Origin: Todiramphus chloris collaris
Lineage: Eukaryota; Chordata; Aves; Coraciiformes; Alcedinidae
Assembly (NCBI GenBank): GCA_025345505.1
Contig: JANVCC010000174.1
Location: 2,044,656-2,108,655 of the forward strand
Reading direction: 5' to 3'
Length of the DNA stretch: 64,000 nt
Made by a program: the position numbers and the translations under genes. Below the pieces are notes generated by a model. It was not told the DNA's origin. It was given only the letters and a program-made list of their open reading frames with translations, and did not search any database. The stretch's first letter is position 1; every line of letters begins with the position of its first letter. Positions 21,601 through 24,600 of this stretch are shown in pieces.

Positions 21601-24600
21601 CTAATATCTGTAGCTGGCTATTGGTGATCTCTGCTTATGGAGTTCATACTGGAACTGCTGGTTAATGCAGTGGTGGGTCCACACAGATTGAAAGGATGGT
21701 GCTGTGTTCAGGCTTTACTCCCTGTCTGAAACCAGGAGCAGACAATCAATTTCTCTGCCTGGATCCAGGTACAGACAGTGAACTCCAGTGCTGTACCAAG
21801 TGTAAAATGTGCTGTGGTGATGCTTCAGCAATGCTACAGAATAATAGCAGTGAAATGCCTGAGCTGCTGTGTGCCAAACACTGGGGGGGAACCTTTTTCT
21901 TTCCCCTTACTCATCCATTCTATGAACTATCCTAAAACCTTCTAAATGCTGTCATTCAGCCACTTGTGGTTGGGGTCCACAGTGGTGTTGGAAACAGTGT
22001 GGAAACCTGTGTGGAAAGACCCAGTAGAGCCTTGCTGGCTGATACACAGTTTCCTCTACCTCTTGAACTCTTTCATTTCTAGTCTCTTGCTTGGTATCAG
22101 ACACTTGCTGACTTGTAGGTCTGTTTATCTGTGTGTCCTTTTTCTTGCATGACTGGCTTTGGTTTTGGCTCTGAGTCTTCATGTCTTCCTTGATTCTCTT
22201 GTCCATTTCACTTCTGTCAGGTGTATCCAGAGCTGTTAAATATGTTAACGAGTTCCTGGGGACAGCATTGTGTACACAGGTAATGGATGTGCTTTCAGTG
22301 CAACCTTGTCACTTGGATGAATTTCTCCAGTGCATGGTCTTGCCAACTGACATTGCAGCAGGCATTCCTAGATGATGCTGACTTCATGCGACTTCCATTC
22401 AATTGAGATGAGCTCTCTTAAGTATTCAGATGTGGTTGTAAGCTCAGGTTGGATTGGGGTTTGAATAGCATGAGGTGGTATTCTTCAGATTCTTGTTGTT
22501 ACTGAGATCACCTACTAATGCCTGCATAACCAGTGTGGTTGACCAGTGTCTGATTTGCTTGTTCCTTCCAGGTGTCTCAAAAGCTGTTGAGCACGTCAAT
22601 AAAACAATTGCACCTGCACTGATTAGCAAGGTAGGAGCAATCTGTCTTCTGCTAACATCAGCTGATGCTGTGTGTCCTAAAGGATGGGTTGTCTCTGTAG
22701 AGACAATTACAGGAGCTGTGTTCCGTGGGGGTGTGAGCCTGTGTGTTGGGAGTGCATGTGAACAAACTGACCTACAGCAATTGATTTATTTAACTGCATA
22801 TCTAACACTTAATCAAAGCAATCTCTATCAGCCTAGTCTTGTCATGTGCAGAAATATTTAAACACCTGGGAACTTAAGTGGTGTGCAGTTCAGATACAAG
22901 CTCCTTTATGCTTACAGGGGTGTCTGAATGCTGAGGAGGGGCTGGGTTTTATCTGAGCTGGTTAATTTGGAAGGGATACTGAGGGGCTCTTGGTAATGTT
23001 TGCTTGAGTGGAACTCCTATGTGTGGGCACTGAGCTCTAGCTAGAAGGGATGGTGGAAAACTTAAGTGGTAATGTAGAAATGATTGAACATTCTCAGCGA
23101 TGATTCCAAGCGTTCTGTCTGGAGTTACACATGGGTGTATGTTGTAAGCAAGCCAGTTGTCTTTGAGCTTGCACAAAAGTGGCAGGGTGCATCAACTGTT
23201 CCATCCTCCTGGGCCATGCCAGGCAGGTAGCAGTGTGAGTGGCAGAAAGGCACGGGACATGATGGCCTTACAGCTCTGAATGTAACAACAAAAGTGCTTG
23301 ATGTGTCAAACTTACATGTCAGCCTTGATCTGCTGGAGGTGACTGGAAGTTACGGTGGTGTGATGGTGACAAGTCTCTTAAGCTGTTGGTAGCTGCCCTT
23401 AAGCAACTCTTGGTGCCTGCCAAGGAAAGAAAAATACAGTGTGTAGGTGAGAGTTTGTAGAGTCTTGTTTGGTGTCAGCAGTGCTTCGCTTGCTTCTCTC
23501 TGCAGAATGTCAATGTTGTGGAGCAAGAAAAGATTGACAAACTGATGCTGGAAATGGATGGATCAGAGAACAAATGTAAGTGGGCTTTGTGTTGCGGGAA
23601 GGTGTGAAAAAGGGAAGCTTGGTTTGGAGAATTTTAGCTCTCCTTCTCAGAAGCCGTGGGCAGTGTGTGGCATGTGCACTTCACAATAAGGACTGTGGTG
23701 CTGGTACTGCTGAGTCTCTTTGAAGATATAACACTTTTGTTAACAATTTCTTCCTGTTTCAGCCAAATTTGGTGCCAACGCCATCTTGGGTGTATCTCTG
23801 GCTGTATGCAAAGCTGGTGCTGCTGAGAAGGGTGTCCCCCTGTACCGTCACATTGCTGACCTTGCTGGAAATGCAGAAGTCATTCTTCCAGTTCCTGTAA
23901 GTCTCTTGATAGGGCAGTGTAAGACTTGATCTGATCAGGTGCTTTGTGACATCTTGTGGTCTTGGATCAAGTTTTTTAGAGAATGAACAGTCTTAACTTA
24001 AATGCTGGTGTCTATTTACCCTGAAATATTGTAACTTGACTTCTCTTTGGTTACTCTAAGGCTTTCAATGTGATCAATGGTGGCTCCCATGCTGGCAATA
24101 AGCTGGCGATGCAGGAGTTCATGATCCTCCCCGTGGGTGCTGACAGCTTCAAGGAGGCAATGCGCATTGGTGCAGAGGTGTATCACAATCTCAAGAATGT
24201 CATCAAGGAGAAGTATGGCAAGGATGCAACCAACGTGGGTGATGAGGGTGGCTTTGCCCCCAACATCCTGGAAAATAAAGAAGGTAAAAATGAGCTAAGC
24301 GTGGGAGGAGGCACAACTGCTAGCCAGAGAACAAGGACCACAGCTGTCCAGTATAAAAGGAAAGTAGGATCAGTGGACTGCAGGACTGCTGCTGCTTCTT
24401 TGCTCTGCTGCTTATCCTGACAAACTTTCCAGGATGCTGTACTGGTGTGGACCAGTATAGGACCACAGAACTGTTCCCTTGAACATAAGTTTATGCAGCT
24501 TGACAAGATGGCTTTGGCTTCAATGCCTCTTTACTGTTCCATTCCTGTAGCAGCTTAAGAGAATCTTACCCTCTTCAAGTTAAGTAGTGTTATGTCTGCA

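What the first reader, a model, noticed from the sequence alone, without database searches (positions are those of the whole stretch)
22221..22630. Tandem duplicated, probably mutually exclusive exon 4 in ENO1
Two exons 292 bp apart have exactly the same length (59 nt), the same entry and exit phase, and canonical splice sites. They encode GVSRAVKYVNEFLGTALCTQ and GVSKAVEHVNKTIAPALISK, identical at 9 of 20 residues and about 33 of 59 bases by hand count. Such divergence with an intact frame and splice sites implies an old duplication kept by selection. It predicts a second alpha-enolase isoform differing at residues 61-80, the first helix of the N-terminal domain just after the mobile catalytic loop. 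PKM is a known precedent for exon choice in a glycolytic gene. I do not recall a published description for ENO1.
Basis: partly seen in the sequence, partly recalled or inferred. Interest (0 to 1): 0.88.

Follow-up and report, generated by a model that had tools for sequence, protein, structure and literature searches.

The report
Ancient alternative exon in alpha-enolase
A gene for a basic sugar-burning enzyme carries two interchangeable versions of one small exon, and the little-noticed second version is also found in proteins of sharks, fishes, frogs, snakes, birds and some mammals, which points to an old second form of this enzyme.

Summary
ENO1 exon 4a (22,221-22,279) and exon 4b (22,572-22,630) are both 59 nt, in the same phase, with AG/GT sites, identical at 33/59 bases and 9/20 residues. 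Including both, or neither, causes an early stop. No other open AG-59-GT segment in the window comes close (score 46; next 13).

Of 121 vertebrate enolases fetched, 59 carry the 4a segment: sharks and rays, ray-finned fishes, lungfish, amphibians, snakes, birds and six mammals. 4a and 4b segments form two separate classes. In a frog and a crow, two whole proteins differ only inside exon 4, as splice isoforms should. The pair therefore appears older than the shark/bony-fish split.

Ten searches of the held papers found no description; databases list it as computed isoforms (often "isoform X2"). It is a new, ancient member of a known kind (mutually exclusive homologous exons, as in PKM). I saw no RNA or peptide data. 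Its control (perhaps RBFOX) and function (a changed helix surface) are inferred. None of seven primate proteins fetched carries 4a.

The parts
19975..20070 (+). ENO1 exon 3 (96 nt), shared upstream partner
22221..22279 (+). ENO1 exon 4a (59 nt), alternative exon, GVSRAVKYVNEFLGTALCTQ
   Evidence: orthologous segment in 59 fetched proteins
22280..22571 (+). Intron between 4a and 4b (292 nt), GT...AG; long enough to be spliced
22572..22630 (+). ENO1 exon 4b (59 nt), canonical exon 4, GVSKAVEHVNKTIAPALISK
23506..23575 (+). ENO1 exon 5 (70 nt), shared downstream partner; holds the stop met if both exons 4 are skipped
22101..22220 (+). Pyrimidine-rich 120 nt before 4a with 8 PTB-like motifs (2-5 before the other 10 exon starts compared); possible silencer, inferred
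   Evidence: the exon 2 value is counted from its ATG, not its acceptor
22146..22151 (+). TGCATG (RBFOX-type motif, recalled), 75 nt before 4a; role inferred
22331..22336 (+). TGCATG (RBFOX-type motif, recalled), 52 nt after 4a; role inferred
22753..22758 (+). TGCATG (RBFOX-type motif, recalled), 123 nt after 4b; role inferred

Best explanation
Exons 4a and 4b of ENO1 are an ancient tandem duplicate pair, spliced one or the other. Each gives a full 434-aa alpha-enolase; the two differ only in residues 61-80. Shown on this sequence: equal length and phase, usable splice sites, and that inclusion of both or neither stops the frame early, so only single inclusion makes enzyme. Shown from proteins of other species: a 4a class, distinct from 4b, across jawed vertebrates. 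Inferred: exclusivity comes from regulation plus decay of frame-broken mRNA; RBFOX-type sites around 4a may favour it in some tissues; and 4a keeps the buried face of the helix while changing its exposed face (E67/K71 becomes K67/E71, H68Y, T72F), so catalysis is kept and a surface for partners or assembly is altered.
For: Same length, phase and splice sites; codon position pattern 11/15/8 of 20; best match by far in the window and single match in the assembly; 4a in 59 of 121 fetched vertebrate enolases from sharks to mammals; 4a signature R64 33/33, K67 32/33, Y68 32/33, F72 32/33, C78 30/33, Q80 33/33 distinct segments; Discoglossus and Corvus isoform pairs identical except inside exon 4; all 59 nearer ENO1 than ENO2 outside exon 4, the lungfish by a near tie; both/neither gives stops after 96 and 70 aa. 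TGCATG three times in 710 nt where 0.28 is expected.
Against: No transcript reads or peptides were seen; the other species' isoforms are computed annotations. 16 of 59 4a models have a faulty join, three of them containing both exons. No primate entry of 7 has 4a. The motif count is post hoc (one of five motifs, stretch chosen by me). The one-face claim holds for six positions that I picked (p 0.0125) but not for all ten differing positions in 62-79 (p 0.14). No RNA pairing was found that would enforce exclusion.
Confidence: 0.88

Rival explanations
1. 4a is a regulatory (poison) exon: its use with 4b breaks the frame and lowers enolase output by mRNA decay, and its own protein sequence is incidental.
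For: Joint inclusion stops inside 4b; the two introns are ordinary, so joint splicing is possible.
Against: 4a amino acids are kept in their own class over sharks to mammals, and whole isoforms with 4a alone, frame intact, are annotated; a poison exon needs no conserved protein reading.
Confidence: 0.06
2. 4a is a decaying relic or chance look-alike; the database isoforms are models that gene finders carried from species to species.
For: Entries are computed; 16 of 59 have faulty joins; I saw no reads.
Against: Open frame, phase and splice sites are intact here after far divergence; lowest 4a-4a identity (13/20) exceeds the highest 4a-4b identity (12/20) from sharks to birds, which decay would not keep.
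Confidence: 0.03
3. 4a arose more than once: separate exon duplications in different vertebrate lines converged on similar segments.
For: Fly-type and tapeworm enolases are about equally near to both classes by identity (9/9 and 12/11 of 20), so outgroups do not root the pair firmly; DNA positions in other species were not seen.
Against: The shared signature R64, K67, Y68, F72, L73, C78, Q80 in all groups is much easier to explain by one origin; ENO2 exon 4 here and in human is 4b-like and this genome's ENO2 shows no 4a.
Confidence: 0.03

Closest known systems
PKM exons 9/10 (pyruvate kinase M1/M2)
   Same: A glycolytic enzyme gene with two neighbouring homologous exons of which one is used, changing one surface region of the protein (passages of PMC7954323; PMC12487847).
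   Different: PKM's choice changes allostery, tetramer assembly and tissue use, tested by experiment; for ENO1 none of this is known, and the ENO1 exons are much shorter (59 nt).
Mutually exclusive homologous exons in general (human catalogues)
   Same: Ancient origin (the set in PMC4465641 is dated over 460 million years; passages), and changed residues that tend to be surface exposed (PMC7954323).
   Different: ENO1 and enolase do not occur in the main texts of five such papers; their supplementary gene lists were not seen. The ENO1 pair may be missing or unused in primates.
OGDH exons 4a/4b
   Same: Metabolic enzyme gene with mutually exclusive exons (abstract of PMC7969005 in the listing).
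   Different: OGDH exclusion is enforced by distant branch points; in ENO1 the AG-free zone before 4b is only 23 nt, which speaks against that device.
MBP-1 and tau-crystallin (other products or uses of ENO1; recalled)
   Same: Same gene, other roles.
   Different: By recall they come from a downstream start and from high lens expression of the ordinary protein, not from exon choice.

Membership tests
Mutually exclusive tandem-duplicated homologous exons | Neighbouring exons of like length and same phase with usable splice sites | tested here: met
   59 and 59 nt, same phase, AG/GT
Mutually exclusive tandem-duplicated homologous exons | Sequence homology beyond chance | tested here: met
   Score 46 v next best 13 of 224 open AG-59-GT segments
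Mutually exclusive tandem-duplicated homologous exons | Both copies kept as coding sequence in related species | tested here: met
   59 fetched proteins with 4a, 62 with 4b, two separate classes; protein level only, no DNA of relatives
Mutually exclusive tandem-duplicated homologous exons | Joint inclusion or joint skipping gives no functional protein | tested here: met
   Stops after 96 and 70 aa
Mutually exclusive tandem-duplicated homologous exons | Whole isoforms exist that differ only by the exon swap | tested here: met
   Discoglossus P0010/P0091 and Corvus P0006/P0044, computed annotations
Mutually exclusive tandem-duplicated homologous exons | Transcripts contain one exon and practically never both | not testable with these tools
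   No RNA reads available; three database models hold both exons and look like prediction errors
Mutually exclusive tandem-duplicated homologous exons | A device that enforces exclusion (short intron, site incompatibility, distant branch point, RNA pairing) | tested here: not met
   292-nt intron, ordinary GT-AG sites, AG-free zone 23 nt before 4b, no pairing beyond shuffles. Such a device is common but not required; frame-broken mRNA decay remains
PKM-type regulatory exon switch of a glycolytic enzyme | Isoforms switch between tissues and differ in regulation or assembly | not testable with these tools
   Needs expression data and enzyme assays

The most novel reading that the evidence does not exclude
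Jawed vertebrates have two alpha-enolases from one gene. The 4a form is switched on in particular tissues, perhaps by RBFOX proteins, and shows a charge-swapped, aromatic helix face that docks enolase to a partner or structure without changing catalysis. Primates, and so human studies, may have lost or silenced it, which would explain why it has been missed.
Probability: 0.25. Interest if true: 0.82.

Novelty: new member of a known kind. Interest (0 to 1): 0.64.

Why it matters
ENO1 is a heavily studied enzyme with many proposed non-glycolytic roles. A second isoform, apparently kept since before the shark/bony-fish split and differing in one 20-residue segment, would be a natural experiment for separating catalysis from those roles. 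It would also mean that antibodies, peptide searches and human-based isoform catalogues may overlook part of vertebrate enolase. The signature R64, K67, Y68, F72, C78, Q80 makes the claim testable at once in existing RNA-seq and peptide data.

Tried and rejected
Exclusion by splice-site incompatibility or too short an intron: both exons have ordinary GT-AG sites and 292 nt lie between them. Competing RNA structure: duplex energies between the three intron stretches were no better than dinucleotide shuffles (47, 18 and 57 of 60 shuffles at least as strong). 4a in ENO2: this genome's ENO2 (C49, L021) has a single 4b-like exon 4; tblastn and a motif scan of the 9.9-kb stretch showed no 4a. ENO3 was not found in the assembly by the one search made, so it is untested. 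A link between 4a and the N-terminal extensions of some database isoforms: Peromyscus entries have the same kind of 141-aa extension with 4a (P0035) and with 4b (P0088, another species), so no coupling is seen. A Phodopus isoform pair could not be compared because its two models differ before exon 4.

Structure: a prediction of the hoazin 4a isoform (P0008 with alignment A1) was accepted and polled 28 times without finishing. No structural result is claimed; no fold search was made.

Literature: ten searches, of which I read the listings, and passages found by term in twelve papers: PMC9741552, PMC5740500, PMC9013439, PMC4465641, PMC7954323, PMC2881024, PMC12487847, PMC12965863, PMC10940350, PMC10849765, PMC10179559, PMC13178736. 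None of the passages shown speaks of an ENO1 exon 4 alternative. Of 19 papers holding both ENO1 and 'mutually exclusive exons' I opened five. One search searched six 4a peptide strings: no paper. Most subscription journals, preprints and all supplements were out of reach, so this does not prove that it is unpublished.

Full report
What is there. The window holds the ENO1 (alpha-enolase) gene on the + strand, coding exons from 18,581 to 27,864. Between exon 3 (19,975-20,070) and exon 5 (23,506-23,575) lie two 59-nt exons, 4a (22,221-22,279) and 4b (22,572-22,630), 292 nt apart, each with AG before and GT after. 4b is the canonical exon 4. Base identity is 33 of 59, highest at codon position 2 (15 of 20) and lowest at position 3 (8 of 20), as expected for two exons that diverged while coding.

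Is it more than chance? Both strands of the window hold 525 AG-59-GT segments, 224 of them open in the exon 3 phase. Against the 4b peptide, 4a scores 46 (4b itself 96) and the next segment 13. Without splice constraint, 51,911 open overlapping 20-codon stretches give 27 as the next best. The 4a peptide matches one place in the 1.17-Gb assembly at E <= 0.001. My earlier one search used the wrong frame and is not evidence.

Frame logic. With 4a or with 4b the message encodes 434 aa. With both, the frame stops inside 4b after 96 aa; with neither, in exon 5 after 70 aa. So only one exon at a time can give enolase.

Other species. A protein search with residues 54-93 of the 4a isoform returned 106 proteins, 46 of them with 4a. 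A second, with a string of 4a pieces, returned 60 at E <= 10, only the 8,000 candidates sharing most words being scored. A third, with a whale 4a protein, returned 57. Together 122 distinct proteins; I left out one tapeworm enolase (P0120). Of the remaining 121, 59 carry a 4a segment and 62 a 4b segment. By the names (my count) the 59 are 10 bird, 2 snake, 6 mammal (opossum, two rodents, whale, pig, camel), 11 amphibian, 1 lungfish, 1 Polypterus, 19 teleost and 9 shark or ray entries. The collection is clustered at 90% identity, so many isoforms may be hidden behind near-identical entries and absence means little. Still, none of the 7 entries named as primates carries 4a, and no lamprey, hagfish, lancelet, turtle or crocodile entry with 4a appeared.

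Two classes. The 33 distinct 4a segments agree with one another at 13-19 of 20 positions, the 24 distinct 4b segments at 10-19, and 4a with 4b at only 5-12. In 4a, R64, L73, A76 and Q80 are in 33 of 33; K67, Y68 and F72 in 32; C78 in 30. In 4b the usual residues are K64 (22 of 24), E67 (20), H68 (19), K71 (20), T72 (21) and K80 (24). Beyond exon 4, all 59 match this genome's ENO1 better than its ENO2, the lungfish only just (83.1 v 83.0%).

One gene, two isoforms. In the frog Discoglossus the 4a and 4b proteins (P0010, P0091; same longest-contig length) are equal over 434 residues except 12 positions, all in 63-80. In Corvus (P0006, P0044) they are equal over 430 compared residues except 10, all in 64-80. 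This is what exon choice produces. It is computed annotation, not reads that I saw; that NCBI X-numbered models usually draw on RNA-seq is recalled. Of the 59 4a proteins 43 have clean joins on both sides; 13 have a faulty join downstream and 3 upstream. Three of the faulty ones (two pigeons, one shad) hold both exons with other residues between them. I take the faulty ones as prediction errors, but they count against treating every entry as proof.

Which copy is the original? ENO2 exon 4 is 4b-like (human 15 v 8 of 20; this genome 13 v 8 of 18), and this genome's ENO2 shows no 4a. Outgroups do not decide: a fly-type enolase (PDB 5wro; the organism is recalled) has 9 v 9 of 20 and the tapeworm 12 (4a) v 11 (4b), with scores slightly nearer 4b (39 v 48, 55 v 59). 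So 4a is probably the derived copy, arising in the ENO1 line, or earlier with loss in ENO2, but before sharks and bony fishes parted (about 450 million years, recalled).

How it probably works. Shown: only single inclusion keeps the frame. Not supported: exclusion by incompatible sites, by a short intron, by a distant branch point (AG-free zone before 4b only 23 nt), or by competing RNA pairing. Suggestive only: three TGCATG motifs (RBFOX type, recalled) at 22,146, 22,331 and 22,753, where 0.28 would be expected in 710 nt (Poisson P of 3 or more 0.003), but this was one of five motifs counted in a stretch that I chose. Also suggestive: the 120 nt before 4a carry 8 PTB-like motifs against 2-5 at the other ten exon starts compared (exon 2 counted from its ATG). 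I infer a default 4b with regulated 4a use, and decay of mis-spliced messages.

What the protein change may do. No catalytic residue of enolase lies in 61-80 (recalled), and V62, V66 and A76 are invariant across an alignment of 18 4a and 9 4b proteins, as buried positions would be. Six clearly changed positions (64, 67, 68, 71, 72, 78) fall on one side of a model helix, opposite the hydrophobic moment (R 0.69, p 0.0125). I picked those six; all ten differing positions in 62-79 do not cluster (p 0.14). The E67/K71 pair of 4b is K67/E71 in 4a, and 4a adds Y68 and F72. I infer a stable helix with a changed exposed face, hence changed contacts rather than changed catalysis. No structure was obtained.

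Compared with what is known. It works like the PKM pair, and it meets the sequence-level features of mutually exclusive homologous exons; the transcript-level feature could not be tested, and no special excluding device was found. Five studies or reviews of such exons do not mention ENO1 or enolase in their main texts (supplements not seen), and ten text searches (listed under Tried and rejected) found no description in a library that lacks most subscription journals. Sequence databases do list 4a isoforms, so the exon is annotated but, as far as I could see, not discussed.

Verdict. It is a new member of a known kind with an open and easily tested function.

Noticed in passing
L002 (G000:C618:3337664-3341917; contig of 3.4 Mb): The bird assembly holds a contig with an intronless 425-aa enolase, 54% identical to ENO1, in GC-rich (58%) DNA dense with bacterial-type reading frames; it looks like an alphaproteobacterial contaminant or companion (type recalled from the sequence).
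   Followed up: partly
G000 as a whole: One search with the full ENO1 protein found ENO1 (C117) and ENO2 (C49) but no ENO3; it may be missing from the assembly or below the search's reach.
   Followed up: no
P0095, P0110, P0113, P0114, P0117, P0119 (teleost proteins): Several teleost models continue after 4a with V-N, as if read through the 4a donor into the intron; annotation error or a real alternative donor.
   Followed up: no
P0003-P0007 (passerines), P0034 (rattlesnake), P0028 (pig), P0035 (deer mouse): Database 4a isoforms often carry N-terminal extensions that look like translated 5' leader; seen with 4b isoforms too.
   Followed up: partly
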